Assembly: GCF_000003195.3 (NCBI RefSeq)
Contig: NC_012874.2
Location: 5,177,001 to 5,241,000, forward strand
Reading direction: 5' to 3'
Length of the DNA stretch: 64,000 bases
Source: Sorghum bicolor
Lineage: Eukaryota > Streptophyta > Magnoliopsida > Poales > Poaceae
The translations under genes were made by a program, and so were the position numbers. Of this stretch, positions 10,776 to 52,920 are shown piece by piece (the stretch's first letter is position 1; each line of letters opens with the position of its first letter). The notes under the pieces are model-generated. The model had not been told where the DNA came from and did no database searches. It worked only from the letters and a program-made list of their open reading frames with translations.

Positions 10776-10900
10776 ACAAGGAATGCCAGGAAATGGGACT
10801 GTCCATGGGGCCATGGATATTATCATCACTTTACTCAGGATGCGTGTGAACTGATATTTTGGACCGATGGTAGCTGCTTGCCTTATGCCTCCTATTCGCA
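10776..10900 (+). ncRNA. miR2118-like precursor candidate
   Basis: The 3' arm at 10879-10900 (core CCTTATGCCTCCTATTCG) matches the grass miR2118 consensus at about 18 of 22 positions by eye. The putative 5' arm (ACAAGGAATGCCAGGAAATG) begins at 10776. It aligns with the 5' arms of sister units (20759, 35875, 51698), which also follow a GGTAC/GGTGCC stretch. Pairing between these arms is poor: AGGA and AGG blocks pair but the centre does not. The motif is convincing but the hairpin may be decayed. Following sequence (CACCACAGAAACC) aligns with that after the copy at 22399. Confidence 0.5.
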
Positions 10901-11952
10901 AACGAGGAAACACCACAGAAACCAATTAACATGGTGAAGTACGTGCTGTTTATAGAGGGCATGCTTTGCTAGTGTTGTCTATGCCATGGTGGAATATCTG
11001 ATGTTTTATAGAGGGCATGCAAATAAATGGTGCAGATCCTCTGACTTACACATGTTCTCATTTGTACTATGGAAAAATGAATCTACATATAGGCTATAAA
11101 TAAACAAAAAGTTAAAACATTGGGATATTGGAATATAATGAAACGATTGGACTGCAAAAATATACAAACAGTAGCATAGAACTATCAGCCATGCCCATAC
11201 GTGCAGTTCAGACTGGAATTTCTGTCGCTTTGAGCATTCAATTAAGCATAAACTATCAATATATAGCTAATTACAAAATTTGGAATACACTTTTATAATT
11301 ATCCCACTGGAGTATAAGAACTATATACAAGTCAATCTCAGGTAGTTCAGACTCGAAACACCCATCAATAGAATTATGGTAATGTTTCTTATTTTCAATC
11401 TACAAGCAACGTTCTATCATGATATAACCAAGTGACTGGGAGCCTGTTTACATGTTGAAGCACTCCCTACAAAACTAGCTACGTGAACTTTCAAGGAAAA
11501 CCACATACTTAGATCCCTCCCCACCCTACCCCATTCCCTGAGTTCATGCAGGATAGTAAATTGTTGGCAAGGAAGCTGTTTTGCAGTTATCCATATTGCA
11601 AGCAGGGCCTGCCTCTGGTTGACTGAACTGTTGGTAGTTTCCTTTGTCGTGTTATTCCATTTTTCTCTTCCTCCTTCCAAAAACTTATTCTATTGTATGC
11701 ATTAAAATAATTTTTACTAATACAAGTCGGGTAATCGGTCCCATTTATTTTGTTTAATATTTAAATCATTGTCCTATAAGACATGTGAATGACCCAATGA
11801 CTGTACAGCACGCGTGGTGTTGTCTTTGAAAGAAGCGTGCATCTAGAAGTTTCTGCCTCCGCCATTAATGGTGTATCCTGTATGCTTTGTCTGCTTGCAC
11901 AGAGTTTCTTTTGGCAGCTACGGCATAGGCCCAAGTAATTAACCTTCATTCA

Positions 11953-12073
11953 GGTACTGCCAGGGATGACTAACCCCTGCCACATAACTTTGATCTTGTT
12001 GGTGTACTCACGCTTTGGGCAAACTGGTATTTTGATCTGCCTATAACTGCTTCCCTCATGCCTCTCATTCCCA
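11953..12073 (+). ncRNA. MIR2118: miR2118-like precursor candidate
   Basis: 12052-12073 contains CATGCCTCTCATTCCC and agrees with the miR2118 consensus (variant with TCTC) at about 19 of 22 positions, one of the best matches here. Sequence upstream aligns with the unit at 10776: GGTACTGCCAGGGATGAC, then TACTCA, then ACTGGTATTTTGATCTGCC. In the 5' arm, GGGATGA can pair with TCATTCCC with one bulge. The rest of the arm pairs badly, so processing to a mature miRNA is uncertain. Confidence 0.55.
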
Positions 12074-13288
12074 AGAGACATCCCATCCACTTCCTGGATC
12101 ATTTTCACATTGCCCTGTGTGTTTATGTGCTACTGTTAGCTGTGCCTCATTGAGAAAGGTTATATATAGAGAGGGCTGGGCATGCAGATGATGTGGAATT
12201 TCTTTTAATTTTATATCGTATCATTGGATTTATTGTTGATGAAATAAAAACAAAAAGAGACTATGGATCTCTCTTGTAACCATGACAGATGGTAAAACAT
12301 GGGAAGGTGTTCACATTAAATTTGAACTTAACCAGTGTATTACTCAAACGATCAAGTTGTCATAACACCTTACTATTAACCATTACAATTGAGCATCATT
12401 AAGCATGACATTTATTGCATTTTATAATCATAGCATGCCTACTTTTGTCATGAAGATAAATATTAACAAAAGGGATGACGATCGGGAAGGGCCCAGGAAA
12501 GGAAATTAATAAAATGTTAAATATTATTGAAAGACTCAGAATCAAAATAATGCAAATTGATTCAGATACTTCAAAGTTGAACTGGTTAATAAATGAACTA
12601 TAACAATAGTTCGCATGTCTTATATAAAAATGAAAATCAGCAAATACGTCTGGAAATGCTGATTGCATGAAACGAACCATGGTTTATGTTTTGGCCTTTT
12701 GAATAAATTAAATCTACTAAAATATTTCAATATGTGAATACACAAAAAATGGAGCATGATATGTACTACGTCATTGCACAAAACCAGGTTAAAGATTTTA
12801 TTAAAAAAACATTACAAAGTTGTAGCCCAGGTTAAGATTCCCATTCTTTCATGCTAGGTGTCATGATTTCAGCATTAATTGACTTAGTTTTGCATTGCCT
12901 TGTTTACAGGATCAACTCCAACTGTATATGCTATTATTGTCAGGATCATGGTTATGAAGGATGATAATGGGAAAACTATTTCTTTTTATAGTTCATCTCA
13001 GCAAATTACAACAGCACCGTCATGCAAAATGGAAAGCTCATGAAGTGAAGTCATATTGTATAGATTTTATGCAGTTGTCTTGTTCTTTCAAGATTCATCC
13101 ACTTCTTGATTTCCAATAATCTGTTCATGATGCACGTACCACAAGCAGCCACAAAATCCATTGAAGTCAGGTCCTTGTTCCCCACGTACCAGCTAGCACT
13201 GTATAGACACTCTTCGCAAATGACCCGATGTTATCCTTGTTTCATGCAGTATGCCTGCGGATGAACGCATTGGACTTCTGGTAACTTC

Positions 13289-13310
13289 TTCCCCTAACCC
13301 TCCTATTCCA
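13289..13310 (+). ncRNA. Diverged miR2118-like motif
   Basis: Contains CCCTCCTATTCCA preceded by TTCCCCTAA. The 3' half fits miR2118 exactly (CCTCCTATTCC) but the 5' half does not. It lies in a unit partly duplicated from the one at about 10.2-10.9 kb. No convincing complementary arm was found upstream. Confidence 0.35.
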
Positions 13311-16740: not shown

Positions 16741-17052
16741 TTGGCTAGGGTTTATTAGCTAGGGTTTATGGTTAAGCTTGAGATTAAAGGAAAAAACCTA
16801 AGTTACATAATTAAAAAATAATCTAAGTATAGCATAACTATATAAATACATCATTCATTATAAATAGATAGATGATGTGGAAGGTGATAATAAAAAACCT
16901 AACTACCATATAATTAAAAAAATCCACAAAAAAATCTCTCTACATAAATATACAAAGAACACACCATTGGTTTAATCTTGTAAAAACTAGCTAAGAAGCA
17001 AACATGTTGAGAGGCATTATCCAACCATATTAAGCAACCCCATCTAACCATA

Positions 17053-20758: not shown

Positions 20759-20780
20759 TTGGTAAGAGAGGCATCAGGAA
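20759..20780 (+). ncRNA. miR2118*-like 5' arm (or miR2118 on the minus strand)
   Basis: The reverse complement of this 22-mer begins TTCCTGATGCCTCTCTTACC and matches the TCTC variant of miR2118 at about 19 of 22 positions. On the plus strand it sits 82 nt after a TATA box, where the star strand of a precursor is expected. The matching 3' arm is not seen within 100 nt. A CACTA element inserted at 20883 has separated whatever lay downstream. The next plus-strand mature-like motif (22399) can pair with it over AGAGGCAT and flanking bases, but is about 680 nt away even without the insertion. Confidence 0.5.
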
Positions 20781-20882: not shown

Positions 20883-21810
20883 CACTAGTAGAAAAGAGTA
20901 CAAGGCCGACGCCTCTTTTTTATACCACTGGCGGTTTTAGTTATCACGCGCCTGTGGTGTTTCTACAGGCGGTTCTCCTAAGAAACCGTCACTAAAAATC
21001 ATATTTCTACATGCGGTTGCTTAAGAAAACCGCCTGTAGAAATCATGTATTTCTATAGGCAGTTTTCCTAATAAACCGCCACTAAAAATCATATTTCTAC
21101 AGGCGGTTAACCGCATGTAAAAATAATTTGAAATTAAATTTTTTAAGCTTTTCAAATGACCCCGTTTGTCAATATGAAAGTTGTAGATCTCGAAAAGTTA
21201 TGAAATTTTGTAGTTGATAATTTTCATTTGGCATCATCTTGTCGTCGAAAACAACATTTGAATTTCTCAAATTTGAAATTCAAATTTTGCAAATGACCTT
21301 GGATGGAGAAACTACCAATATAAAAGTTGTAGATCTTGAAAAGCTATGAAACTTTGTAGTTGACAGCTTTTCTATTTGAATCTGTTTATGGCCTCAAATA
21401 ATCAATGTATGCTCAGTTTAGTATAATATATGGCGAACTAAACTCTAACAAATACACATTTGAGTGATAGGTGGAGTGGTAGAGAAGGTTACACCTGAGG
21501 GTGAGGTCTCAGGTTCGAATCCCACTAGCCGTGCAGCGCATGATTTTACGTGAAAAAATACGCGACTTGCGACTAGATAGTGGTGGGCCTTCCTTGGAAT
21601 TAAATCTTTTTTATTCCTATTTTTCAAACACAATTTCATATTTTCTATAAAAAAAATTTCCACAGGCGGATCCGCCTGTGGAATTGTTTTCTACAGACGG
21701 CTCATAAGGAACCGCCTGTGGAATTGACCCATTTCTACTGGCCTCTAGCGCAGCCAGTGCTGAAAAACGCCACTACAAATAGGTTACCAAAGTATGCCCC
21801 TGTACTAGTG
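20883..21810. mobile_element. Non-autonomous CACTA transposon, 928 bp, TSD CAA
   Basis: It starts CACTAGTAGAAAAGAG, ends CCTGTACTAGTG, and is flanked on both sides by CAA (20880-20882, 21811-21813). Subterminal motifs are of the ACAGGCGGTTxxCTTAAG type. It has no coding sequence. The interior has a block shared with the elements at 26752, 39801 and about 50464 (TTGTAGATCT-GAAAAG-TATGAAACTTTGTAGTTGA) and a tRNA-like segment with a B-box (GGTTCGAATCC) around 21510. Confidence 0.93.
21465..21530 (+). other. tRNA-like (pol III A/B-box) segment inside CACTA element
   Basis: GAGTGGTAGAGAAGG resembles an A-box and GGTTCGAATCCCACT a B-box. The spacing (about 35 nt) is as in tRNA genes or tRNA-derived SINEs. 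A full cloverleaf is not evident. Relatives occur in inverted orientation at about 27045-27110, and decayed ones at about 40720-40790, 51080-51140 and 55575-55620. It is therefore an ancient part of this CACTA family, not a functional tRNA gene. Confidence 0.55.
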
Positions 21811-22262: not shown

Positions 22263-22420
22263 CGAGTTACTGTACCTGACGGCAAGGACATACTCTCTCT
22301 GATATTCACTGCTACTGGAAAATCTTTGCCACACTACAGGTGTCGTAGAAATTCCACCTGACCTGGCAAGGTGGTATGTTTGACTCCTCATAGATGCTTC
22401 CCTTATGCCTCTAGTTACTG
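22263..22420 (+). ncRNA. miR2118-like precursor candidate
   Basis: 22399-22420 contains CCCTTATGCCTCTAGTTACT, about 16 of 22 positions matching miR2118. Upstream at 22263-22291, GAGTTACTGTACCTGACGGCAAGG offers AGTNACT and GGCA...AGG to pair with AGTTACT and CCTTATGCC, leaving a loop of about 110 nt. Pairing is moderate with a large internal loop. Downstream text (AACACAGAAACAT) aligns with that after the copy at 10879. Confidence 0.42.
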
Positions 22421-25658: not shown

Positions 25659-25680
25659 TCCCAGTTGCCTCCTTTTCCCA
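25659..25680 (+). ncRNA. miR2118-like motif
   Basis: CCCAGTTGCCTCCTTTTCCC fits miR2118 at about 17 of 22 positions. It lies in a segment (about 25620-25820) duplicated at about 46460-46690, where the corresponding motif is at 46498. The stretch AAAAACGGAGGATCTTGCC just upstream (25630-25648) can pair by GGAGG, but the loop would be only about 10 nt. A proper precursor is not established. Confidence 0.4.
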
Positions 25681-26700: not shown

Positions 26701-27846
26701 GAAGTGGGCAACAAGATGCCAACTGCATGCCATTGCTGATTACCACATTACCACTAGTACAGACGCATACTATACAGGCGGCTGAAAACTCATTTCTACT
26801 AGCGTTTTTCAGCACCGCCATGCTGGAGGCCAGTAGAAATGGGACATTTCTACAGGCGGTAACTAAGAATCACCTATGGAAATGCATTTCTACAGGCGGT
26901 TCAGTTATGCCAACCGCCTGTAGAAATCTTTTTCCAGAAAATAGGAAATCGGTTTTTAAAAATAGGAAAAAAAAGATTTTAATACAGGGAAGGCCCATCG
27001 GCTAGTCGCGCTTTTTTTCGCGTACAATCGCGTGCTTCGCGGCCGGTGGAATTCGAACCTGCGACCTTGCCCTTGCGCGTAGCCTTCTCTACCACTCCAC
27101 CTATCACTCACTTGTGTTTATATTAGAGTTTAGTTCCCCACATATTATCTCAAACCGAGCATATATTGATTATTTGAGGCCCTAAATGGATTCCAATGGA
27201 AAAGTTGTCAACTACAAAGTTTCATAACTTTTTAAGATCTACAACTTTTATATTGGAAGTTTTTCCATCCGAGGTCATTTACAAAATTTGAATTTCAAAT
27301 TTAAGAAATTCAAATGTAGTTTTCGACGACAAGATGATGTCAAAATGAAAAAATTATCAACTACAAAGTTTCATAACTTTTCGAGATCTACAACTTTCAT
27401 TTTGACAGTTTTTTCAAATAAGGTCATTTGAAAAACTCAAAAAATTTAATTTCAAATTATTTCTACTGGCGGCTTTCTTAACAAACCGCCTGTAGAAATA
27501 TGATTTTTACAGGCGGTTTCTTAGGAGAACCGCCTGTAGAAATACATGATTTCTACAGGCGGTTTTGTTAAGAAAACCGCCTGTAGAAATATGATTTTTA
27601 GTGGCGGTTCCTTAGGACAACTGCCTGTAGAAATGCATGATTTCTACAGACGGTTCAGTTAGGAAAACCGCCTATGAAAATGCATCTTCACAGACGGTTC
27701 GTAGTTCTGACACCGCCCTTTTTACACCACAGGCGCGTGATAACTACAACCGCCTGTAGTATAAAAGAGGGCGTCGGCGTTGTACTCTTTTCTACTAGTG
27801 TACTTTTCCAGGCTAGGCACTAATTCCCTTTTGCCACCCATTCCTT
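26701..27846 (+). ncRNA. miR2118-like precursor interrupted by a CACTA insertion
   Basis: 27825-27846 contains CCCTTTTGCCACCCATTCCT, about 17 of 22 positions matching miR2118. A candidate 5' arm (GAAGTGGGCAACAAGATGCC, 26701-26720) could pair by TGGG/CCCA and CAA/TTG blocks. Between them sits the 1049-bp CACTA at 26752-27800. Removing it leaves about 100 nt of loop, a normal size for this family. The unit is a diverged duplicate of 47600-48110, where no such insertion is present. The interrupted copy is probably non-functional unless the transcript tolerates the insert. Confidence 0.45.
26752..27800. mobile_element. Non-autonomous CACTA transposon, 1049 bp, TSD TAC
   Basis: It starts CACTAGTACAGACGC, ends CTTTTCTACTAGTG, and is flanked by TAC on both sides. 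It has CACAGGCGGTT-type subterminal repeats and, in inverse orientation to the 20883 element, the shared interior block and a tRNA-like B-box segment (GGTGGAATTCGAACCTGCG, about 27045-27064). No ORF of interest. Confidence 0.93.
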
Positions 27847-28887: not shown

Positions 28888-29293
28888 TGTCGACGAAAGC
28901 TAGTCGGCAGTCTACCTCGGGGTATACCCACGGTAGTAGTTTATCGGTAGACGGTGCGCAAACTACGAACTCGATGGTGACGCAAGACACGGACAAGCTT
29001 TTTATCCAGGTTCGGCCGCCGCGTTGGCGTAATACCTACGTCCTGCGTCTGGTTGTATTGGATTGTGTTGAGAGATAATCTGTATGATTTGTCCTCTAGG
29101 GGACCCCTGCCCCTCCTTATATATCGTGAAGCGACAGAGTTACAAGCAAAGTATCCTATTTGGTACAATATCTTGTAGCCTTGCGGTGCACGCGACCAGT
29201 CGTGCGCCGCACGTCTTCATCTTGTGGGCCGAGCCACCTCTGACGGTGCGGCCCATATAGGCCCATGAGGGTATAGGGGTTTATACCCCCACA
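28888..29293 (-). repeat. 3' LTR
   Basis: Differs from 31089-31495 at only a handful of positions (for example GTGACGCAAG against GTGACCCAAG, and one indel in the CACGCGACC / CACGCCGACC stretch). Read on the minus strand, a weak purine tract (GCTCGGAGACTAGC) immediately precedes TGTGGGGG. Confidence 0.92.
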
Positions 29294-29699
29294 GCTAGTC
29301 TCCGAGCACCATGTATTGTGATGTAACACGCCGTCTTGAGCTTCTTCGATTAGTGAGGCTTGACGTCTTCAATAAGCAGGAAAGTCGCCCAAACAGTTGC
29401 AACGGTATTTTGACCAACTCAAAAGACAGTTGATCAACATTGACATCGAAGAAGCAGGTTGTTCGAAGAATGCATGGTGCTCTTAATCAAAAAAGATTTC
29501 TTTCCTGGTGAAGTGTGCCCACTTTACTTTTCTGAAAAGTATAGTCTTTCAAAAAGCAAGCATATTCACCGCAAGGTGAAGTGTGCCCACTTAGTCCCCG
29601 AGCCTGGTAGTAGGTGACGTAGGCACGTGGTGCCAGGGTCAAAAGAAAAGTCCTCAAAGAAATTTTGAAACTGAGATGCATCGCCAGATGCATCGTACC

Positions 29700-30205
29700 G
29701 ATGTAGTCCCCGAGCTTGCTGGAAGGCGAAGTATGAGCCTTGTAGCAAGGTCTAAAAAATTGAATTTACCAGTCCCCGAGCATATCATGCTCGTATGCAA
29801 TTGAATAGACTAATCGACCAGTCCCCGAGCATATAACGCTCGGTGGTCGGTACAGTCCCCGAATTCTCAAATTGGTGGGCTTGTCGACCAGTCCCCGAGC
29901 GTATAGTGCTCGGTGGTCGGTGCAGTCCCCAAGCTCTTAAATTGGTGAGCTGGTCGACCAGTCCTCGAGCGTATAGTGCTCGGTGGTCGGCACAGTCCCC
30001 GAGCACGGCGTAGGGACCGGTGGACAAGTCCCCGAGCGTGGTTGGGAACGTAAACGTGCTCGGTGGTCGGCACAGTCTTCGAGCATAGCATAGAGAGTAG
30101 TCGACAAGTCCCCGAGCGTGGTTGGGAACGTAAACGTGCTCGGTGGTCGGAGCAGTCCCCGGGCACAGCGTAGGGAATAGTCGACGAGTCCCCGAGCGTA
30201 GCTTG
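29700..30205 (-). repeat. Internal tandem repeat of the LTR retrotransposon
   Basis: Six or more diverged copies of a 60-80-bp unit built around CAGTCCCCGAGCGTATAGTG, then GCTCGGTGGTCGG. The unit resembles text just inside the 3' LTR (TCCGAGCACC). ORFs that cross it are repeat artefacts. Confidence 0.85.
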
Positions 30206-31088
30206 TCGACTGGGCCAAACTCCTGAAAAATAAATATAGATAAAATTGGTAGTACATGATGTATAAATAAACTCTAGATAAAAAATCAGCACTGAGATAA
30301 GTTTTAGATTTTTTATTATAAAATTAGCACGAGTAGTTAATTCATCCTAGAGCTTGTACCAGCTCTGGTCTAGCCAACAATCAGCATGAGGTGCGGAACC
30401 TAGGCACGCGTAGGATTGTCAGCCACGTCAGAGAGCTACTGCCGACCACCCGGAACGCAGAGGGCGGATCTCGTGCACGTGTAGGGAGGAGTCGGAGACA
30501 GTACCGGCTCTGGAAAGCTCGTGTAGGAGAAAAAACTAGTCGGCTAAAAAAGTTGTTTTGAAGAATAATAATATTAAAAATATTATGCCAAAAATAAATA
30601 AGATATTAGAAGTGTACTTATCTTTGGATGAAAGTCTAGTCGGTGACGACAAAATTGTCTGGCCCTCGAGCTTTTGGACTTGTTATCGTGACGGTGGTCG
30701 CGGTTGTCGTAGCGCCGTTCTTCGCGGCGATTATTATTGCGACTCGTGGTCAGAGCAAGTAGGCCAAACAACTTGGTTGATAGGCTGAGCAGGTCGGTGT
30801 CGTTGATCTGCCTCCCTTTGTAGCAGAGAAGCGGCGACGCGTTGTCGGCGTGGTCGGAGACGCTGCTGGTGTGGTCGAAACCGTAGCCAGCGTGGTTGGA
30901 GCCGCAGCCGACGTCGGTGAAGAAGTGATCGGCACAGATCGGATCTACGCCTCCTCTGCGGTCATGGCGGTGAAGCTGTTGAAGCCGACGACGAACGTGA
31001 AGCCGCCCGCCATGACCGCGAAGTCGGGGATGATGGCCATCTTGTTCGTCGAGAGAGCTGTACGCACAGCCCCTACCTGGCGCGCCAC

Positions 31089-31495
31089 TGTCGACGAAAG
31101 CTAGTCGGCAGTCTACCTCGGGGTATACCCACGGTAGTAGTTTATCGGTAGACGGTGCGCAAACTACGAACTCGATGGTGACCCAAGACACGGACAAGCT
31201 TTTTATCCAGGTTCGGCCGCCGCGTTGGCGTAATACCTACGTCCTGCGTCTGGTTGTATTGGATTGTGTTGAGAGATAATCTGTATGATTTGTCCTCTAG
31301 GGGACCCCTGCCCCTCCTTATATATCCTGAAGGGACAGAGTTACAAGCAAAGTATCCTATTTGGTACAATATCTTGTAGCCTTGCGGTGCACGCCGACCA
31401 GTCGTGCGCCGCACGTCTTCATCTTGTGGGCCGAGCCACCTCTGACGGTGCGGCCCATATAGGCCCACGAGGGTATAGGGGTTTATACCCCCACA
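31089..31495 (-). repeat. 5' LTR with adjacent primer-binding site
   Basis: Second copy of the LTR. The primer-binding site lies one base inside it at 31070-31087. The LTR contains a TATA-like stretch (CTTATATATCC, 31317-31327) that could belong to its promoter region on the opposite strand. Confidence 0.92.
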
Positions 31496-34974: not shown

Positions 34975-35105
34975 AAATGAGCAGCAGGATGCCAACTTGG
35001 TGCTGCCGATTCTACAAGTAAGGTCCAAGGATGCCATTATGTGGAGGTGCGCCAACTGTGGTTAGTGTTAGGTGCATGCTGATTCCTTGTTGCCTCCTAT
35101 TTCTA
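34975..35105 (+). ncRNA. MIR2118: miR2118-like precursor
   Basis: The mature-like 3' arm at 35084-35105 (CCTTGTTGCCTCCTATTTCT) matches miR2118 at about 18 of 22 positions. A candidate 5' arm, AAATGAGCAGCAGGATGCC (34975-34993), can pair by AAAT, CA and AGGAT with ATTT, TG and TCCTT; the loop is about 90 nt. An alternative nearer arm is GTGGAGGTGCGCCAAC (35041-35056), pairing by GGAGG and AAC. The unit is a diverged duplicate of 41469-41568. A conserved TATTATATATAACAT follows about 100 nt downstream. Confidence 0.6.
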
Positions 35106-35874: not shown

Positions 35875-35896
35875 TGGGTATGATGGGCACCAGAAA
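35875..35896 (+). ncRNA. miR2118*-like 5' arm
   Basis: The reverse complement (containing CTGGTGCCCATCATACCC) fits miR2118 at about 16 of 22 positions. It follows a GGTGCCATTGGG block and an upstream promoter-like region shared with the 20759 and 51698 copies. No good 3' arm lies within 200 nt (GGTATTTGCAGGGTG near 35971 is at the expected place but is badly decayed). Confidence 0.38.
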
Positions 35897-37210: not shown

Positions 37211-37386
37211 AGGAGGCATTTAGTAGAGAAAGTTTATACTTAATTTTGAATGCTAACACACTAGAAGAAAGCCACCTCACTAGGAGAAGTCCAAAGATTT
37301 TGGTTGTGCAATGCTGCTGATCCCCTCTCCTAGAACCATCAGCTTTTTCCTTCTGATATCTACTTTCCTTATGCCTCCCCGTCCAA
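37211..37386 (+). ncRNA. MIR2118: miR2118-like precursor
   Basis: 3' arm 37365-37386 (TTCCTTATGCCTCCCCGTCC) matches at about 18 of 22 positions. 5' arm AGGAGGCATTTAGTAGAGAAAG (37211-37232): GGAGGCAT pairs perfectly with ATGCCTCC, and AAAGT pairs with ACTTT after a bulge of about 5 nt. The loop is about 130 nt. This is one of the stronger hairpins. The segment 37310-37650 is duplicated at about 44580-44930. Confidence 0.62.
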
Positions 37387-39358: not shown

Positions 39359-39381
39359 TTCCATTTTGCCTCCTATCCGGA
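39359..39381 (+). ncRNA. Diverged miR2118-like motif
   Basis: CCATTTTGCCTCCTATCCGG agrees at about 15 of 22 positions, with the central TGCCTCCTAT intact. GCGGATGG at 39279-39286 can pair with CTATCCG, but the rest of the arm does not. Downstream, AAGTATTATATATATAC (39466-39482) resembles the conserved post-miRNA block of other units. Confidence 0.38.
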
Positions 39382-41468: not shown

Positions 41469-41568
41469 CAATGAAGCAGGCAGCAGGATTGCATGCTGCT
41501 CCTGTGGAGGTGTGCCAAATGTGGTAAGTTCTAGGCGCATGTTGATTCCTTTTGGCCTCCTATTCCTG
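41469..41568 (+). ncRNA. MIR2118: miR2118-like precursor
   Basis: 3' arm 41547-41568 (CCTTTTGGCCTCCTATTCCT): 16 of 22 positions, with the whole 3' half exact. 5' arm CAATGAAGCAGGCAGCAGGA (41469-41488) pairs by AAT, AGGC and AGGA. A second option, TGGAGGTGTGCCAAA (41503-41517), pairs GGAGG/CCTCC and CCAAA/TTTGG across a 4-nt bulge with a loop of about 30 nt. Which fold forms cannot be judged by eye. The downstream block GCACTATATATAACATCGAG is at 41656-41675. Confidence 0.58.
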
Positions 41569-42793: not shown

Positions 42794-42947
42794 CAATGCA
42801 GTGAAGAAGCACGGTGCCCCAACATTGTGGACTGCCTGCACGATTGGGTCAACAATCCATGTCGATTGGCATTGGCCGGGCTAGCTCAAGACGACATTTT
42901 TTGACTTTTTGTTCTAGTACCTCCTTCCATCCTGCCTCGCATTCCTA
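42794..42947 (+). ncRNA. MIR2118: miR2118-like precursor candidate
   Basis: 3' arm 42926-42947 (CCATCCTGCCTCGCATTCCT): about 17 of 22 positions. 5' arm CAATGCAGTGAAGAAGCACGG (42794-42814): AATGC pairs perfectly with GCATT, then pairing is patchy. The loop is about 110 nt. The arm aligns with that of the 41469 unit (CAATG.AG). A TATATATAAAACTC stretch immediately follows the mature-like arm. Confidence 0.5.
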
Positions 42948-43210
42948 TATATAAAACTCAAGGAAAACCCATTTCCAGCTACTAGGATCTATCTCCTCAC
43001 GCCAAGTTCATGTACCTGAGCTAGTGTCATATATACTACCATGCACGTCAAAATTGATGTGCACCTGCAGCCTGCTATATACTATGGGTTGCAGCATTCA
43101 TTCTATTATATAGTATAGTATGCATATGTGGAGGCAATGCAATGCATATCACCCAACCCACACACACAATGACCAAATCCATCATCAACAATATTTCTGT
43201 GTTTGTTGTA

Positions 43211-43415
43211 TAGGGCTGGGAGGTATTAGGAATGCTATCAGCATCCAGACCTCATGACCATGTGGCTTCCACAAAACCTGTATGCACACTTCCAGATCCA
43301 GGAAAATTAAGCACAGACCTACTATACCACTCCACATAGCTATGCACCGCACTAAAGTTCACCGTGGCATGCAACCTCTGCTATAGCACACCGCTCCTGC
43401 TACCCAACCCACAAC
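43211..43415 (+). ncRNA. Diverged miR2118-like hairpin (star arm better conserved)
   Basis: 43211-43232 (TAGGGCTGGGAGGTATTAGG) is, as reverse complement, an 18-of-22 match to miR2118. Downstream, CGCTCCTGCTACCCAACCC (about 43396-43414) pairs with it through GGG.TGGG and AGGA, giving a hairpin of about 200 nt with a degenerate mature arm. A shorter repeat of the star arm (GAGCTGGGAGGTACTAAACC) lies at 43465. The whole 43080-43680 block is duplicated at 52370-52920. A minus-strand miR2118 gene is an alternative reading. Confidence 0.42.
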
Positions 43416-44355
43416 GACACAGACAACTTCAGCCACCTGAATACATATTTCTCATTTAGTCGCAGAGCTGGGAGGTACTAAACCTCTTTAGATTGAGACC
43501 ACCTAGTGACATCTGTAAAACTCGTATGCAGGCTTATCCAAACAAATGGCTGATAGTGGCACCTGTGTGTCCACCTTTGTTGATCAAATTCCTTGGTTGT
43601 GGAATTTACACTTGGGTTCAGGGTGTTTAATGAAAGTTTGTACAAAAATTCTCACACATGTGTGTGCATATCAAATGTGCTATAAATAAGAAGCTAGAGG
43701 AGAATGAAAAAGCATCCAGGTTGCAAGGGCTCCCGTATGTCCAAGAGAGAAGTCTAAGGTGTGTAAATGCACACCTGTATACTTAGCTTGACAATACGTA
43801 GATGATCCCATGATTGCACAAGCATGTGCAGATGCTGCGCTGAGCGTTCCCACCTGAGCATTGTACGCATATGAAGTGCTTATATATGGACATTGGCAGA
43901 TGCAGCCTGAGAAAGGAGGTAGGGTGAACTTGAACTACAAAATCTAGGCTAAATGAGGACAGCACTCGTAAAGCTGGGATAAAGCCTATGGTCCAGAAAA
44001 ACAACTTTGACATGCATTCAACACAACGTAAATGAGTATAGGTTTAGTCATGCAGAAAGTACAGTGTGCTAACTTATGAGTACATGAGTATCAATACAAG
44101 ACACAGAGTACTGCGCTAGTCCAATGCTAATAATGTCATTGTACTTAAGTGTCTGCTCAGATTTGTATGAGCAAATCATTTAAAAAGACATACCCTGAAC
44201 TGGGATATGAGAACTAACGATTACCAGCCTATGTTTAATGGTATTAAATTGAATAAATTCTAAGACCCATATTAAACGCTAGGGGCAATAAATCTTAGTT
44301 TCACATAGGATTTTGACTAAACATTGACTCAACTTAAACATGTAGACTAGTGGTT

Positions 44356-44678
44356 GCAAGGATGAGATAGGTGAAGCGCATGCTACACTCGTCGAGCCGT
44401 CGAGCCCAGGACTCAACTTTGCTGTTGCCAACCGGGACTAAAGGTGGACCTTTTGTCCTGGCTCGCGGAACCGGGACTAAAGGTGGGACATTTAGTCGCG
44501 AAACCTTAGCCCCGGTTCCGTAGCCGGGACTAAAGGCCCTTACGGCCCGGGGCTAAAGCCCTTTCCTGTACCAGTGCTCTCGGGGTTGTCCTGCCATTGC
44601 TGTTGAGACACCTCTCCTACAACCGTTAGTTTCTTTCCTACAGATATATATCTACTTTCCTTATGCATCCCCTTCCAG
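44356..44678 (+). ncRNA. miR2118-like precursor with transposon end in the loop
   Basis: 3' arm 44657-44678 (TTCCTTATGCATCCCCTTCC): about 17 of 22 positions. 5' arm GCAAGGATGAGATAGGTGAAG (44356-44376): AAGG, ATG, ATA, G and AAG are in register with the 3' arm. Between them lies the CACTA-type remnant at about 44415-44575, which lengthens the loop. The 3' arm and 300 nt after it are duplicated at 37365-37650. Confidence 0.48.
44415..44575. mobile_element. CACTA end fragment of the GGGACTAAAGG family
   Basis: Repeated CCGGGACTAAAGG / TTAGCCCCGG motifs, ending CTTTCCTGTACCAGTG at 44575. The opposite terminus and target duplication are not seen. It belongs to the same family as the subterminal repeats at 62-112 and 4570-4790. 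Confidence 0.65.
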
Positions 44679-45812
44679 GTAGATAATCAACATCTCAATT
44701 CTACCATCAACATCTCAACTCTATCCATCATGTTTCTTCACATTCTTTGTGTGATTTGTCAAGTGATGGCTTGTGTGTGCAACAGTGGAACATATATAGT
44801 CATGATATGCATGTACTCTGTGCATATCTACTTCATATATATAGAGAGAGGGGTAATACCAATTGTGGTCGAATTTTAGTAGGTGAACTACTGACGATGT
44901 GCATTCCACTTTGAACATATAACATGTGCTCCATTCTTTTAAAATTATAGATTACTTTAGATTTGTTCTAACTCTTTTCAAGTTTGACCCTGTTTTTAGA
45001 AATAATATATTGATCTCAACAAGTTCAAATAAGTATGTGCCCATGCAGCTGTGAAGGTTTGAACACATGACCAGAAACCCCATGTGTTAATTTGAACACA
45101 TGGTCCTTAATTAACCATTATCCCTCAAAGTCGTTTGAGACTAAATGGTTGATGTGTGCTATTTATATCCACTTTAGTGAATATATATTGTAATGTTTAT
45201 TTGAGACCCTAAATGAAATTAATTTAAAAAGCATTGAAAAGAAAATTTAATATATTTTTGTGTACTACAACTTTCACTTAGGTCGTTTCTCCATACAAGG
45301 TAATTTTAACAATTGAAAAATATGAATTTCAAAATCATTAATCAATAAAATAGAATTTCAGGGGAACTAAATTATTCTAAATGAAAAAGTAATCAACTAC
45401 AATTTTGTAGCTCTCTTTGAGTACTAGAACTTTGGTATAGGTAGTTTGTCCATGTGAGGACATTTTGGAATGTTCAAACTAATTGAATTTCAAATTATGT
45501 TCAGGCCTGAATGCTTTGATATAAAAGTTAGTTTCTATCTGACTTTATTGAAAAAGTTACAAATTTACTATGCTGCACCTCTTTTTAGAGGCAGACCAAA
45601 TTATATATAAACGGCTTCTAAAACTTCATTTCCAGAGATGGTGCATTTCTGGCTGCCTCTTAAAATGCACTCTATTTTTAAACGTGTCTAGCTAGTGTTT
45701 AGTGTTTCTTTGTCATAATCTGTTGACGATCAAAACTGAATGGAAGCGGTCAAAAACATAGCATAACTACCGCCACTGGAGAGGTAGCTAGTATTTTATT
45801 AAGTTCGCATTA

Positions 45813-45951
45813 GGCCTTGTTTGGATGTTGTCGGATTCACCTCAATTCATATGTGTTGGAGTGGATTGGGGTGAAATTTAGTTTGAGTTACACTCCAACC
45901 CACTCCAACACATGTGGATTGATGTGAATCCGACTACATCCAAACAAGGCC
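45813..45951. mobile_element. Harbinger/Tourist-like MITE, 139 bp, TSD TTA
   Basis: A near-perfect palindrome: GGCCTTGTTTGGATGTTGTCG at one end and its complement (CGACTACATCCAAACAAGGCC) at the other, with the inner arms (GGATTCACCTCAATTCAT / ATTGATGTGAATCC) also pairing. Flanking TTA (45810-45812, 45952-45954) fits PIF/Harbinger insertion. No ORF. Confidence 0.88.
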
Positions 45952-46497
45952 TTAGATGAACGTATAGGCATGTCCATGCCCTGACGGACGTACCGACTTG
46001 CAACATAACTGATGCAAAGAAAACTCCAGACACTGGAGGCATGCCTTGGTTGACTGACTAACTCTTTGTGCTTGTACTGTGCCACTAGAAATTAAAACAA
46101 ATGAAAATCTGCTTCGAGACTTGACGGGGATATACTTCACAAACCACCTCTTCCAGACTTCCAGACTCTGATCGAGGGGACAATTTGATGTGTTCCTCTG
46201 CTCGGTCAGTCACTGTGCGGAGGCTGTCAGGTGAGTGTTTATATTTCTCACATAGGGGTGTGGTCGCGTAGACGTCACCGGGTGGAAGTGCCTATTTTCT
46301 GTATTTGGATGTGCAGTAGCATCTTAAAAATACATGAACACTGAAAAAGGACATCACAAGTATATATCTTGGAAATGCTTGACAGATATTTTTATTTTTC
46401 CATCACAAGCAACATTTCCGACTTCCTTGCCAGTAGCATTTCTATGTTGTTGCAGAAATGATTGTCTAGAAAAACAGAAGATCTTGCCTGGCATTCA

Positions 46498-46520
46498 TTC
46501 CCTGTTTCCTCCATTCCCCA
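46498..46520 (+). ncRNA. Diverged miR2118-like motif
   Basis: TTCCCTGTTTCCTCCATTCC has the pattern of miR2118 with one inserted and one deleted base. It sits in the sister unit of 25659, and sequence after it (CAACTTTTCTCCAGTGATTTTT) aligns for about 170 nt. No convincing 5' arm. Confidence 0.35.
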
Positions 46521-47907
46521 CCTTTAATTACAACGACAACTTTTCTCCAGTGATTTTTCTCTGTCTTCCAGTACGTACTCATTCGATTCTACTATGCTCC
46601 TCATCTGTTCTTTGGTGACCCAAGGCAAGAAAATCAATATATACATTACCAGATAGAGGTCGGACTTATCAGGCCTTGTGATTCCAGGACCATCAGCAAC
46701 AGGACCTTTAGGCACGCTAAAGTACAGTGCTATACTACAAATTATGAGTAGAGCTGTGCCTATATGATCTTGGGATGTGCTTGGACCATTTCAGCTTCAT
46801 TATATGTGAATCTTTTAAAAAAGTAAAAATACAGAAAATTGAACTAACATTCACAACAAAATAGTTTAACTAAAATTATCAAGAAATAATTGATAACATA
46901 TTTGGGCTCCAATACTATACAGAACGTTCAATGAAAAACGGGTCAAGACCCGCTTGTGAAAAACGTAGAACATTCACTATACATATCTAGATGACTAAAA
47001 AATGCACTAACATCAACAACGTAATAGTTTGACTAGGGTCGTGTCTATTTGTTGCTAGGACCTTGAGCCATCAATTTGATAAGATATTAGATAGTTATAT
47101 AATTCCTATGAGCTAATAGGATAAAAAAAAGAATTTTGTCACGGTGTTCCTATGAGATAATAGGATAAAATAGGTGCCCCCAGCAAGGCCTACCTGCTTG
47201 TCACAGTGTCAAGTGTGGGAGAAGGTACAGAGGTGTTGCTGCCATCATGCATGTGTGCATTATTTTGCATGCACGATACTACCGCAGACTAAATGAAGTT
47301 TGGCGTCAATTGACTTTAATTTAATGGATTTTTCTTTTTTAATTATTAAACTGTTTTATAAATTTTAAAATCAATAGCTGTGATTTATTTCAGCTACTAG
47401 TTTCTACAGAGTAATTGGAGTACCCTAGCTAAACTCTGTTGGCTACAACTTTCAAATAGAAAAAGTGACTAAATTGACAATGTTGGCTTTTTAACAAATC
47501 AGAATTTAAATCCTTTAATGAGGTACTCAAAAGTTTTATGAGTATGGATTAAGAAAAAGTGACCACAGTTCTTGATCAGTAGACCGACTCACGTTCTAAA
47601 ATATACATGATTTTGATTAAGGTCAAGTCAGCACACTATAAATTAAAATCAGTGTAGCCACGTACAAGCAGTTTGATGTGTTGTTTATGCCAGCTCCACG
47701 ATTCACCAGCAGCCATCAAAGACCAATGCTCACACTACTCTGCTGGATGAACCGGCAAAGTGAGCATCTGTCCTCGGCTAATAGGATCAATGACGACAAG
47801 AAGCATGGGCCCGTGACTGATCCTGTCTGGAAGCCAGTGAAAATATGTCGACCACATGCCGGCCATTGCTTATTACCTACACAATAGAACTCTGTGTAAC
47901 CAGGCAC

Positions 47908-47975
47908 AAGAACTATGGAGGTACCAGAGTTCTTTGCCTGGCTAGCCATTAATTCCCTTTTGCCTCCCATTCTTA
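47908..47975 (+). ncRNA. MIR2118: miR2118-like precursor, short-loop form
   Basis: 3' arm 47954-47975 (CCCTTTTGCCTCCCATTCTT): about 18 of 22 positions. 5' arm AAGAACTATGGAGGTACCAGAG (47908-47929): ATGG and AGG pair with CCAT and CCT around one bulged C, with further pairs on both sides. The loop is about 24 nt. Outside it GTGTAACCAGGCA (47893-47905) can pair with TGCCTAGCCACAC (47993-48005), extending the stem with asymmetry. The duplicated unit is 26440-27960. GCACTATATACAGG follows at 48059. Confidence 0.58.
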
Positions 47976-49716
47976 TATCACCTCGAAAGATTTGCCTAGC
48001 CACACTATATCTCTTTTACACAATGCTGAACTTGATATAAAAGGATATGGGAAAAGAGGCACTATATACAGGCAATAATAATACTAATGAGGACTTGTGG
48101 TAGCTGTAAACATTTACATTTCATAGTAAAGGGCTTGCAGACCTAAGAGGAAAAACCTTTTTTACATCTTCCTGATATGGTGATGACGCTTTTTCCTTAT
48201 TTAGATAGTCATGAAGATGGAGCATTGTAGGTTGGCTGCGCAATGGGAGCCAGTAGGTTGGCAGCACAAGCGGGAGTCTGATGCAAACGAAAGGACATGG
48301 CAGATGGTGTTGTGTCAGGGAAAATTCAAACTCATGGAAGCTGGGGCTCAGCAAGGATGTTTGCATGCCTCCATAATAAGTAGGGGCCTGAGTTGGGGTT
48401 GCATTGGACTAATGTTTTTTTCTCTGGCTAGAGTGCAAGATTGTGCTCCTGCCTCCTAGGAGGTAGTCTCTAGCTTTAAAAAGATAAAACAATTATCATT
48501 TGTGGTGTGCCAAAAAGAAACCATCATTCATGTTGTAGGCTGGATACTTGAGTTCATCCATTAGCTAGGTGAATTCAATCATGTTTACTTGATCTGATCA
48601 GTAGCAGTGCATATTAATATATATGTGTACAAAGGTTGTCGAATAATAAAGGAATGCACTGATAAATGTTTGAGTTTTTGATTTATGATGGAAGCTAACC
48701 CCAGTGCATTAGTTGGACAATGGAGAAGATAAAAGGAAGGCATATACGCTAGGACTCTATGTGATATTGGGATAGCGAACAGGGATGGATGGAAAGGAGG
48801 TGGATGAGGTGAAAGGCCTCTTGAGATCACATGTATATTTGAATAGATTGATTACAGTGTTCCTTCACATTTGTAGGAATCAAGATAATACATGCTTTCT
48901 CTACAATTAAAACCTCCATAATTCCACGTGGAACAGTGGATGCCTCTAAGACTGATATGCAAATTCCATCGTTGGTCTGTAAACGGTAAGTTGTGCAACT
49001 ATTTATACATAACAGAGCGAAGTGTGAATGCAATATTGTGGCATGATGGTTGAATGTTACTAAATAGGTGTTTTGTAGAACGACACAATATATTACTGAC
49101 TTTGAGTGATCCAGGGACTATATATGATTCAATAGCCTTGAAAGAAAATTGTTGTTTGTTCCTTTCACCAATCTCGCAAATCAATCTTGAATTTGCATTG
49201 TGTGCCAGAAATTTGTAAATTAATTGAAGTATGACCCCATATTGCAACTAAAATTCAAGAAGTTCATACTACTTATTTTTATTTGATTTGGTTTCCATAT
49301 TAGCATGGTAGATTACAACTCTCTGAAAAAGGAGAATGTTTTGTCTAACATTATCATATCTTCATTTCTTCATGAATATGAAAGATATTTTAACTATGCC
49401 ACTTTTATTTAAATTCTTAACTCTAACTCATTATAAGTATCAATTCAGTGAATTCGAAAACAAATGTTTTTAAGAATCATAAACTCTAGACATCCAGGTA
49501 CAATTTAGCACATATCTTAGCTCTTAGGAAGGATAGCATCAGACATTCCTAGACTATGGCACTTACACATATGTTTGTATCCTATATCCATCCATTATAA
49601 GTGAGTGAAAATGTTCAGCTACTAAACAACATATCATGTTAGTACGGCTGAAAATCATAAACTGCACGGGATGAGTTCAAGCCTTCAAGGCTTCAAACCA
49701 TAGTTATTAGAAAGTT

Positions 49717-49857
49717 CTGATATGATGACCAACAGGGTCAAAGGACTTCTTGCACTGTTTGCTGCGTGAGGTTCTGACATGGCGTCGATGAAAATGTTGC
49801 TGGTACAAGAGTTATGTTACCAACTTGATAATAGTTTCCTGTTGCCTCCTATTTCTA
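49717..49857 (+). ncRNA. MIR2118: miR2118 precursor, best-preserved copy
   Basis: 3' arm 49836-49857 (TTCCTGTTGCCTCCTATTTC) matches the consensus at about 20 of 22 positions. 5' arm CTGATATGATGACCAACAGG (49717-49736): CAACAGG pairs perfectly with CCTGTTG; after a 2-nt bulge most of GATATGATG pairs with CCTCCTATT (about six Watson-Crick pairs and one wobble). The loop is about 100 nt, giving a precursor of about 140 nt. Grass miR2118 is taken from the 3' arm and, with Argonaute, triggers 21-nt phased siRNAs in anthers (established knowledge). Expression here is not shown. Confidence 0.7.
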
Positions 49858-50275: not shown

Positions 50276-50463
50276 GTAGGAGGTACGAGGTAGAAAATAC
50301 AAGTTAAATGCACTAGCAGCCCTAAAACCTCCAAGTTTATGTCACCAAGGCCCACGAGCTTTCAAAATAAATTCTGGGTCCCTAAAGTGTAAGTGGTGCA
50401 CTGCAAGTCCATGACATCCACGTATAGTATAGAAATCTTTTTTACTGATGCCTCCCAATTCTA
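50276..50463 (+). ncRNA. MIR2118: miR2118 precursor candidate
   Basis: 3' arm 50442-50463 (TTACTGATGCCTCCCAATTC): about 19 of 22 positions. 5' arm GTAGGAGGTACGAGGTAGAAA (50276-50296): GGAGG pairs with CCTCC, and GGTA(G)AAA pairs with TTTACT by one wobble and a bulge. The loop is about 145 nt. A CACTA-type element seems to begin directly after the mature arm (TTCTAGTAGAGACTGACG), so the basal stem may be lost. Confidence 0.58.
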
Positions 50464-51190: not shown

Positions 51191-51598
51191 GCCAAAAATG
51201 CTGTCTGCCATAATGCCAGCTGCATTGAATTCGATGGTTCCATGGATTCTTCCTGACTACCCCTCAAACTTCAAAAAGTCTGAACACTGTTAGAATGAGA
51301 GTGAAAATTAAATCCAGAGCGAGAACTACCTATTATGAGCCACTGGCACACTGACAATGAGATTAGTGTTATGAGGCTACCTCAAGGACTGACACGTGAC
51401 AACAATACAGAAACCTTCCTTAGATATATGATCAGCCCCATTCACTCCCGGCCTTGCTGATTTTTGGTTTGTGATCTATATCCCTTTCGTTGGCTTCAAT
51501 TTTTTCTTAATTAGTTAAGAAATATGTAGAGCTCCAGCTTTCAAGTATATATGGGCAGGGTGTCACTAACTTTCATTTATGACTTGTGCTACTCCGTC

Positions 51599-51605
51599 TA
51601 TAAAA
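51599..51605 (+). promoter_or_regulatory. TATA box of a miR2118-like unit
   Basis: TATAAAACACAACTTCCTAT matches the block at 20677. Upstream text (CACTCCCGGCC 51441; GGGTGTCACTAACTTTCATTTATGACTTGTG) is shared with the 35-kb unit. The miR2118*-like arm follows 92 nt downstream. Confidence 0.55.
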
Positions 51606-51697
51606 CACAACTTCCTATTCGGATGCATGTCAATGGATTAGGGCTGGCAGAAACAGAGGCATGCATGCATATTACTGGATGAGTCAGCTGGTGCCAT

Positions 51698-51719
51698 TGG
51701 GTGTGAGAGACATCGGGAA
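51698..51719 (+). ncRNA. miR2118*-like 5' arm
   Basis: The reverse complement (TTCCCGATGTCTCTCACACC) matches miR2118 at about 17 of 22 positions. It is preceded by GGTGCCATTGGG as in the 35875 unit. At the expected 3'-arm place (about 51778-51800) the sequence is GGTTCGGTCTTCGCACTGTGC, which pairs poorly. Probably a precursor with a decayed mature arm. Confidence 0.4.
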
Positions 51720-52369
51720 GACGACCCAGCTTGGTGATCAGGGGACTGTGGCATGCAACATCTGGTATCGAGACGGTGGTTCGGTCTTCGCACTGTGCAC
51801 TGTGGACAATTGAGTTATAGTATAGAGACCTGGTCTTAGTGCCCAAAATATAGATAGGATAATGACAGCCATTAGTTTACTCCTCTCCCCTTACTTCAAC
51901 GCTGGGACACTGAGAAGGATTGGGTAGAAGTGCTTTGGCACATTATGTAAGCACTTTTTCAGATTAATGCATTCAAGCATTCTCAAATCTCCACTCTTTC
52001 AGAGTGTCTTGTTCCGGGAAGGTGCTATGTGGTGTAGCTTGTAAATTGATACTGGCACCCAGTTATGGGACAAGGAGAAGCAGAGCAGAGGAAACTTGTT
52101 GTAGGGATCCTGAAGGAACAATGCACGTGGTACCAATTAATCAAGAACACAAACATTTCTAACAGCAACTAATTTTTATCATAGGGTCAATGACAATACA
52201 ACTAGTTCCTAATAAAAAATCTATGTATGGAGAAGTATTATAGAATGCAAGGAGTATATATTATTAACTGATTTTGAATTCCGAGATCATCTTCCTTTTT
52301 GGCAGTTTTATGGCAAGTATTACTAGTTTTGAAGAAGTAGCTTATTAGGTTGACACATTTATTTGGCCA

Positions 52370-52920
52370 TGTACTATGGGTTACAGCATTCATATATAGT
52401 ATAGTATACATCTATGGAGGCAATGCAATGCATATTTCCGTGTTTGTTGTATACGATAGGTAGTTAATAGGAATCCTATCAGCATCGAGACCTCATCTGC
52501 GAGCTGCTTCCACAAAGCCCGTATGGGAGCACATGCGCCTACTATAACACTCCATATAACCATGCACCCAGTACATAACTCAACAGGGCAACCTATGCTA
52601 TAGCACACCCTCCTGCAACCAAAACTCGTAACAACACAGAGCCCTTCAGCCACCTTATACATATTTCTAGTTGAGTCGTAGGGCTGAGAAGTATTAGGAT
52701 GCCTCCTGACATGGAGACCACATCACCTAGTGAGTTCTGTAGAACACATAGGGCTCATCGCAACAAATAGCAGATGGTGGCTCCAGTGTGTCCACCTTCA
52801 TTGATCAAATTCCTTGGTTGTGGATGTAGCACTTTGGTTCACGATGTTTAATGAAATTTTGTACAAAATTTCTCCCATGTATATGCATATTATATGTGTT
52901 ATTAATAAGAAGATATAAGA
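52370..52920 (+). repeat. Duplicate of the 43.1-43.7 kb array unit
   Basis: ACTATGGGTTACAGCATTCA, AGGCAATGCAATGCATAT, and CAACACAGAGCC...CATATTTCTAGTTGAGTCG repeat the 43-kb block. The star-like arm reappears at 52679-52700 (TAGGGCTGAGAAGTATTAGG; about 15 of 22 as reverse complement), directly followed by GATGCCTCCTGACATGG. This is the last unit of the array. Confidence 0.6.

What the first reader, a model, noticed from the sequence alone, without database searches (positions are those of the whole stretch)
10776..52720. A transposon-riddled cluster of about 20 miR2118-like sequences
By eye I count about 15 plus-strand 22-mers with the miR2118 pattern (core TGCCTCCYATTC, preceded by TTCCnn): 10879, 12052, 13289, 22399, 25659, 27825, 35084, 37365, 39359, 41547, 42926, 44657, 46498, 47954, 49836, 50442. 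A further set of star-like arms lies at 20759, 35875, 43211, 51698 and 52679. All share one orientation, sit in paralogous units, and several have a complementary upstream arm. miR2118 in grasses is known to come from clustered genes and to trigger 21-nt reproductive phasiRNAs. A span of more than 40 kb with this much internal divergence would be a large and rapidly changing cluster.
Basis: partly seen in the sequence, partly recalled or inferred. Interest (0 to 1): 0.93.

Follow-up and report, generated by a model that had tools for sequence, protein, structure and literature searches.

The report
miR2118-target phasiRNA locus cluster, not microRNAs
In this grass-like DNA the roughly twenty motifs read as microRNA genes look instead like docking sites for the microRNA miR2118, most of them set just behind a promoter-like TATA box, so the region is most likely a cluster of non-coding genes that make small RNAs in young anthers: a known kind of locus, read in the opposite sense.

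Summary
The motifs are real but the role looks inverted. As miR2118 genes they fail: no place in the 64 kb matches TTCCNNTGCCTCCYATTC with fewer than 3 mismatches, and as hairpin arms the listed sites are within the range of random positions (16 sites: mean 10.25 paired bases vs 10.45; 140-nt MFE -27 vs -30; five predicted wheat MIR2118: -49 to -71). On the other strand they are miR2118 target sites: 7 at penalty <=5 and 11 at <=6.5, against 0 and 0.25 in shuffles; two 'star arms' are the best of them. 21 of 23 sites fall into paralogous groups, some by weak links. Shared sequence runs mostly upstream of the site in target sense and, except in family D, stops soon after it; it is non-coding. 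A TATA box lies 50-170 bp upstream in 18 of 23 (chance 4.75) and in 0 of 23 at 50-150 bp downstream. Best reading: a 42-kb, two-strand cluster of candidate 21-nt reproductive PHAS loci, interrupted by CACTA and LTR elements. The paralogues compared are 73-83% identical, so recent expansion is not supported. Phasing and expression could not be tested.

The parts
10879..10900 (-). miR2118 target site, family B/E
   Evidence: penalty 6.5; TATA at -110; paralogue of 12052, 13289, 22399
12052..12073 (-). miR2118 target site, family B/E
   Evidence: penalty 3.5; TATA at -95
13289..13310 (-). degenerate target site, family B/E
   Evidence: penalty 9.0 with a bulge; paralogue of 10879; TATA at -122
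22399..22420 (-). weak target site, family B/E
   Evidence: penalty 7.0; paralogue of 12052 and 10879; no TATA found
37365..37386 (-). miR2118 target site, cassette 37309-37631; joined to family B/E by one weak link (E 0.04 to 12052)
   Evidence: penalty 5.0; TATA -153; 78% to 44595-44937
44657..44678 (-). weak target site, cassette 44595-44937, partner of 37365
   Evidence: penalty 7.0 with a bulge; TATA at -120 and -163
25659..25680 (-). miR2118 target site, family A; TATA 25787-25794
   Evidence: penalty 6.5; 77% to 46447-46764; TATA -114
27825..27846 (-). target site, family A; TATA 27937-27944; CACTA element begins 24 bp downstream
   Evidence: penalty 8.0; paralogue of 47954
35084..35105 (-). 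target site, family A; TATA 35209-35216
   Evidence: penalty 7.0; paralogue of 41547
39359..39380 (-). degenerate target site with register shift, family A
   Evidence: penalty 10.5; weak paralogue of 35084 and 47954 (E 0.002-0.01); TATA -100
41547..41568 (-). degenerate target site, family A; TATA 41660-41667
   Evidence: penalty 10.0; 71% to 35040-35242
46498..46519 (-). target site with 1-nt register shift, family A
   Evidence: penalty 8.0; paralogue of 25659; TATA -124
47954..47975 (-). miR2118 target site, family A
   Evidence: penalty 6.0; TATA -93
49836..49857 (-). miR2118 target site, family A
   Evidence: penalty 4.0; TATA -135; weak paralogue of 47954 (E 0.01-0.04)
42926..42947 (-). 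weak candidate site, divergent partner of 43211
   Evidence: penalty 8.0, no paralogue; TATA -88; shares the 263-bp interval 42948-43210 with 43211
50442..50463 (-). site-like match next to a TE-like sequence
   Evidence: penalty 4.0; no in-register paralogue, no TATA at -170..-50; sequence from -142 to -2 weakly resembles sequence inside the CACTA element at 26752-27800 (E 0.003)
20759..20780 (+). miR2118 target site, family C; cassette 20557-20882 between two CACTA ends
   Evidence: penalty 3.0; TATAAAACA at -82 (20677); homologous to 35661-35926 and 51478-51721
35875..35896 (+). degenerate target site, family C; cassette 35563-35908
   Evidence: penalty 7.5; TATA altered
51698..51719 (+). 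miR2118 target site, family C; cassette 51385-51734
   Evidence: penalty 4.0; TATAAAACA at -99
43211..43232 (+). best miR2118 target site, family D
   Evidence: penalty 2.5; TATA -104
43463..43484 (+). decayed second site of the same D unit
   Evidence: penalty 12.5; paralogue of 52679
52452..52473 (+). decayed first site of the second D unit
   Evidence: penalty 10.0; paralogue of 43211
52679..52700 (+). weak second site of the second D unit
   Evidence: penalty 6.5; no TATA at -170..-50
20883..21810 (+). non-autonomous CACTA element 102 bp downstream of the 20759 site
   Evidence: CACTAGTAGAAAA...TACTAGTG ends, 3-bp duplication CAA
26752..27800 (-). related CACTA element downstream of the 27825 site, same orientation relative to the site
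   Evidence: 81% to 20960-21780; 3-bp duplication TAC
28888..31495 (.). young LTR retrotransposon in the cluster
   Evidence: 407-bp LTRs 98.8% identical, 5-bp duplication AGCCG

Best explanation
A cluster (about 10.9-52.7 kb) of candidate 21-nt reproductive PHAS loci of a grass. A typical unit is a Pol II cassette: a TATA box, then about 75-125 bp later the miR2118 target site (15 of 23 sites), so transcription would begin roughly 45-95 nt upstream of the site. The non-coding transcript would be cut by miR2118 loaded in AGO, copied by RDR6 and diced by DCL4 into phased 21-nt siRNAs from the region downstream of the site. Shown here: target sites and their non-randomness, cassette homology, TATA position, lack of hairpins and of coding potential. 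Inferred: transcription, cleavage, phasing, anther expression, and the grass host. Seven of the 21 listed sites fit published miR2118 variants well (penalty <=5); others may be decayed, or served by a miR2118 variant with U at position 7, which family A predicts.
For: Target scan: 7 sites <=5, 11 <=6.5; 60 dinucleotide shuffles average 0 and 0.25, 40 permuted miRNA sets 0.02 and 0.32, miR2275 gives 0. TATA 50-170 bp upstream in 18 of 23 sites (null mean 4.75, max 12 in 2000 draws) and 0 of 23 at +50..+150. In family A (8 units) 17 of 142 ungapped columns are invariant: 8 in the 22-nt site, 5 in the TATA octamer, 4 elsewhere (Fisher p 5e-5, site vs rest, TATA left out). In 8 of 13 in-register pairs homology reaches 114-366 bp upstream; in these 13 it ends within 118 bp of the site start downstream (family D paired by its true copies is an exception, see against). 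Non-coding: 93 of 118 indels in seven alignments are not multiples of 3 and every frame has stops. Hairpin pairing within the random range. Grass PHAS loci are hundreds to thousands of loci, non-coding, with miR2118 as the 21-nt trigger (passages of PMC8368212, PMC8521107, PMC11127045).
Against: No small-RNA, degradome or transcript data. 14 of the 21 listed sites exceed penalty 5 with the 8 variants used and 7 of them exceed 7 (9 of 23 with the two added sites). 5 of 23 sites lack a TATA at -170..-50. Family D does not fit the rule that homology stops after the site: 43211/52452 stay alignable (74%) to 494 bp after the first site, and the 25659-27973 / 46447-48102 duplication shares one stretch inside the body. 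The sites were first picked by eye and related units are not independent, so the TATA and paralogy counts overstate significance. TATATA is palindromic: only its side, not its strand, gives direction. The organism was not identified.
Confidence: 0.82

Rival explanations
1. One reading: a cluster of MIR2118 genes whose 22-mers are 3' arms of hairpins and whose star-like sites are 5' arms.
For: Sense similarity to miR2118; MIR2118 genes are clustered in rice and wheat (passages). The five star-like sites read as 5' arms pair slightly more than random (loose count mean 15.0 vs 13.2, strict 12.6 vs 10.8).
Against: 16 sites as 3' arms: mean 10.25 of 22 bases paired vs 10.45 at 250 random positions, best 17 (null 90th percentile 17); with a looser count 11.6 vs 13.0, best 18 (null 95th percentile 19). 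Star-like sites: best 17, below the null 90th percentile of 18 (loose). 140-nt MFE -17 to -34 vs -49 to -71 in five predicted wheat MIR2118. No near-canonical mature sequence. TATA on the wrong side.
Confidence: 0.04
2. A relic PHAS cluster: ancient PHAS loci mostly decayed, no longer processed except perhaps a few.
For: Only 7 of 21 listed sites fit published miR2118 at <=5; decayed sites at 43463 and 52452; TE insertions beside 20759 and 27825; paralogues 73-83% identical with many indels.
Against: In family A the site and the TATA octamer hold 13 of 17 invariant columns, as expected if still selected; the best sites (2.5-4.0) are intact.
Confidence: 0.25
3. A dispersed repeat or TE family that happens to carry a miR2118-like motif.
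For: TE-rich region; units are multi-copy.
Against: Homology between units has ragged ends; TATA plus site are the conserved islands of family A; no unit homology found outside 10.9-52.7 kb of this window. Shared termini and target duplications of the units were not searched systematically, and the genome could not be searched.
Confidence: 0.06
4. Fragments of NLR (NB-ARC) genes, whose P-loop codons are miR2118/482 targets in many plants.
For: miR2118 is predicted to target rice NBS-LRR genes (PMC5023111 passage).
Against: No NB-ARC match in 20 of the 113 stop-to-stop ORFs >=90 aa, the part that was scanned; indels mostly not multiples of 3 and stops in all frames around the sites.
Confidence: 0.02

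Closest known systems
21-nt reproductive PHAS loci of grasses (miR2118-triggered; rice 'superclusters' of Johnson et al. 2009, seen only as a citation, paper not held)
   Same: Non-coding, clustered, miR2118 target site, bodies mostly without conserved sequence
   Different: Here units on both strands share a TATA-leader-site block within families; a group of 8 mostly carries the same mismatch at miRNA position 7; no phasing data
MIR2118 gene clusters (18 members on rice chromosomes 4 and 11; PMC7305157, passages)
   Same: Clustered, similar 22-mers in sense
   Different: No hairpin, variable 22-mers, promoter-like element on the other side
NLR genes targeted by miR482/2118
   Same: Same complementary motif
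   Different: No coding potential around the sites in the alignments tested

Membership tests
21-nt reproductive PHAS locus | miR2118 target site | tested here: met
   7 sites <=5 and 11 <=6.5 vs 0 and 0.25 in shuffles; other sites weak
21-nt reproductive PHAS locus | non-coding precursor | tested here: met
   frame-breaking indels and stops in all frames around the sites, seven alignments
21-nt reproductive PHAS locus | Pol II transcript with the site in sense near its 5' end | tested here: inconclusive
   TATA 50-170 bp upstream in 18 of 23; no transcript data
21-nt reproductive PHAS locus | genomic clustering | tested here: met
   23 sites in 42 kb; no paralogue hit or site <=6.5 outside 10.9-52.7 kb
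21-nt reproductive PHAS locus | 21-nt phased siRNAs, RDR6/DCL4-dependent, premeiotic anther | not testable with these tools
   no small-RNA reads available
MIR2118 | about 140-nt hairpin with miR2118 on the 3' arm | tested here: not met
   16 sites as 3' arms and 5 as 5' arms within the random range
MIR2118 | mature sequence near-identical to known miR2118 | tested here: not met
   best matches have 3 mismatches in the 16 specified bases of an 18-base pattern
MIR2118 | 22-nt reads and star strand | not testable with these tools
   no reads
24-nt PHAS locus | miR2275 target site | tested here: not met
   0 sites <=6.5 with two miR2275 variants
NLR gene | NB-ARC coding sequence | tested here: inconclusive
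   none in 20 of 113 ORFs; flanks non-coding

The most novel reading that the evidence does not exclude
PHAS loci here are modular launch pads: a small promoter/leader/miR2118-site cassette is the selected, duplicated unit, while whatever DNA lies downstream, captured transposons included (CACTA copies begin 24 and 102 bp after two sites, in the same orientation), becomes the phasiRNA body. The cluster would then work like an animal piRNA cluster that records transposons, with family A co-evolving with a miR2118 variant carrying U at position 7, of which I found no report in one search.
Probability: 0.12. Interest if true: 0.75.

Novelty: new member of a known kind. Interest (0 to 1): 0.42.

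Why it matters
Rice mutants with a 16-kb deletion in the chromosome 4 miR2118 cluster are male and female sterile (PMC7305157, passages), yet what is selected in PHAS loci is unclear because their bodies are poorly conserved. A cluster in which TATA box and miR2118 site are the conserved islands of old paralogues (family A) suggests that promoter and trigger site, more than the siRNA sequences, are maintained, and it predicts start sites, cut sites and a trigger variant that anther libraries could test. It also shows how a target cluster can be mistaken for a microRNA cluster when read on the wrong strand.

Tried and rejected
MIR2118 hairpins: searched with arm distances up to 300 nt, for the 16 listed sites as 3' arms and for the 5 'star' sites as 5' arms on + and, read in reverse, as 3' arms on -. 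One search printed some long imperfect pairings (17 of 22 at 35084 and 20759, 18 at 50442, 19 at 52679); by the fixed window sizes the best are 18 (50442) and 17, below the null 95th percentile of 19. The 19 at 52679 came from a window size not used in the null; one search gives 15 there.

Rfam: at gathering score only MIR5565, on both strands of a palindromic element; at E<=5 39 matches, none named MIR2118 or MIR482. I do not know whether Rfam 15 holds a MIR2118 family, so this is not used as evidence.

miR2275 (24-nt PHAS): no sites. NLR coding origin: see rivals. L1-box (HD-ZIP IV, recalled motif) near the promoters: 3 of 23 upstream stretches of 500 bp vs about 1.3 expected; too few to use, stretches overlap.

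Extra sites: 5 unlisted ungapped matches at <=9, one with an upstream TATA (37350, which overlaps the 37365 unit); 25 unlisted at <=10, three with a TATA; none accepted.

Species: not established. Grass origin is inferred from grass-type miR2118 sites and from MIR5565/MIR821-like elements (sorghum/rice families, recalled).
Full report
What was checked. The 21 listed places were read out; each holds a miR2118-like 22-mer of uneven quality. The core TGCCTCCYATTC occurs 10 times with at most 1 mismatch, all on +, against 0.58 expected. The longer pattern with TTCC gives 6 hits (0.91 expected), all at 3 mismatches, 3 of which are not in the list. So the motif is enriched, but much more variable than a microRNA family.

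Hairpins. Five predicted wheat MIR2118 precursors are 138-143 nt with the miRNA between positions 96 and 122 and MFE -49 to -71 kcal/mol (table passage of PMC3398953). For the 16 listed sites read as 3' arms, the best of eleven window sizes pairs 10.25 of 22 bases on average; 250 random positions give 10.45 (95th percentile 18). The 140-nt MFE is -17 to -34, mean -27, against -29.6 at random positions. With a looser count (arm spread not limited) the 16 average 11.6 against 13.0. The five 'star' sites read as 5' arms average 15.0 against 13.2 (loose) and 12.6 against 10.8 (strict), best 17, so slightly above the mean but below the null 90th percentile of 18 in the loose count and equal to the 90th percentile of 17 in the strict one. 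Read in reverse as 3' arms they pair 3-16 bases. These places give no support for MIR2118 genes.

Target sites. Scored as targets of 8 miR2118 variants (mismatch 1, G-U 0.5, doubled at miRNA positions 2-13), both strands of the whole window give 7 sites at <=5 and 11 at <=6.5. Sixty dinucleotide shuffles of the window average 0 and 0.25; 40 permuted miRNA sets average 0.02 and 0.32; miR2275 gives none. The two best are 'star-like' positions on +: 43211 (2.5) and 20759 (3.0). Allowing shifts and one bulge, 14 of 23 sites (21 listed plus two found here, 43463 and 52452) are at <=7; the other 9 are 7.5-12.5. In the ungapped scan 3 unlisted matches occur at <=8 and 25 at <=10, so weak sites rest on paralogy, not on their score.

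Anatomy. Self-comparison and site-anchored comparison place 21 of the 23 sites in families: A (25659, 27825, 35084, 39359, 41547, 46498, 47954, 49836; all -), B/E (10879, 12052, 13289, 22399, 37365, 44657; all -; the pair 37365/44657 is joined to the others only at E 0.04), C (20759, 35875, 51698; all +), D (43211, 43463, 52452, 52679; all +). In A, 39359 and 49836 are joined only at E 0.002-0.04. 42926 and 50442 stand alone. Of 13 in-register pairs (21 listed sites, E<=1e-3; three further rows are TE matches away from the sites and were left out), 8 share 114-366 bp upstream of the site in target sense, while downstream all 13 end within 118 bp of the site's first base; the other 5 share the site and at most 27 bp before or 63 bp after it, though extends 10879/12052 upstream to about -131. 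Family D is an exception: matched to its true copy, 43211/52452 stays alignable (74%) to 494 bp after the first site, 242 bp past the second. Segment 25606-27973 without its CACTA element and segment 46447-48102 look like one old two-unit duplication, with one further shared stretch in the body (26330-26677 / 47502-47807).

Promoter-like block. TATAWA lies at -170..-50 in 18 of 23 sites; 2000 sets of random positions within 10-53 kb average 4.75, maximum 12. At -126..-76 it is 15 of 23 (mean 2.0, maximum 9). At +50..+150 it is 0 of 23 on the target-sense strand. The five without are 22399, 50442, 35875, 43463 and 52679. In the alignment of the eight A units (A1), 17 of 142 ungapped columns are invariant: 5 in the TATATATA octamer, 8 in the site, 4 elsewhere. 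In family C a TATAAAACA box at -82 and -99 is kept in two of three units and altered in 35875. Units 42926(-) and 43211(+) are head to head across 263 bp that hold TATA-like boxes; 42926 is weak, so a shared promoter there is only a suggestion.

Non-coding. In seven pairwise alignments (73.3-83.3% identity over ungapped columns) 93 of 118 indels are not multiples of three (two thirds would be expected without any reading frame) and every frame of every sequence has at least one stop. No Pfam NB-ARC was found in 20 of the 113 stop-to-stop ORFs of >=90 aa; the only matches above their cut-offs are transposase-associated domains of CACTA type.

Mobile elements. CACTA-type elements with 3-bp target duplications at 20883-21810 (CAA) and 26752-27800 (TAC) start 102 and 24 bp after the 20759 and 27825 sites, in the same orientation relative to the site. 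An LTR element (28888-31495; LTRs 98.8% identical; duplication AGCCG) is young. A CACTA transposase (57837-61468) lies to the right, outside the cluster.

Mechanism and family. The target sites, the non-coding flanks and the upstream TATA fit PHAS loci as described for grasses: 21-nt phasiRNAs from hundreds of non-coding loci, triggered by miR2118 (passages of PMC8368212, PMC8521107). [quoted passage not shown] The steps AGO cleavage, RDR6 copying and DCL4 dicing are established for such loci and inferred here. I found no paper placing a TATA box at a set distance from the miR2118 site in four searches (listings only, the two papers listed were not opened); this is no claim that none exists.

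Family A mismatch. Six of the eight family-A sites read GGCAA where miR2118 needs GGCAU, a mismatch at miRNA position 7 (46498 reads GGAAA, 41547 GGCCA), although the site is otherwise the most conserved part. A trigger with U at position 7 would serve them better (49836 falls from 4.0 to 1.0, 47954 from 6.0 to 2.5; 12 instead of 7 of 23 sites at <=5), but I fitted that variant to these sites, so it is a prediction, not a test. No paper in the library holds the pieces of such a variant that I searched.

Verdict. The region is most likely a cluster of 21-nt PHAS loci, old and partly decayed, not a MIR2118 cluster and without sign of recent expansion. It is a known kind of locus; the cassette structure is what is worth following.

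Noticed in passing
43211-43484 and 52452-52700: Family D units carry two target sites each (252 and 227 bp apart). In one copy the first site is intact and the second decayed; in the other the first is decayed and the second weak. 252 is 12 x 21, possibly by chance.
   Followed up: partly
45812-45952: Palindromic element matching Rfam MIR5565 on both strands above gathering score; probably a MITE rather than a microRNA gene.
   Followed up: no
40226-40498, 53057-53337, 27188-27425: Long inverted-repeat elements resembling Rfam MIR821 below its gathering score, both strands.
   Followed up: no
57837-61468 (-): CACTA transposase: Transpos_assoc, Transposase_21 and DUF4218 in one 820-aa frame, DUF4216 in the next.
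   Followed up: partly
6717-7806 (-): Pieces of a second tnp2 (Transposase_21) transposase in two open stretches left of the cluster.
   Followed up: no
about 23237-23303: Remnant similar to the upstream part (-132..-66) of the 10879 unit without a recognised site.
   Followed up: no
16805-17054 and 19786-20035: Direct repeat of about 255 bp, 90% identical, unidentified.
   Followed up: no
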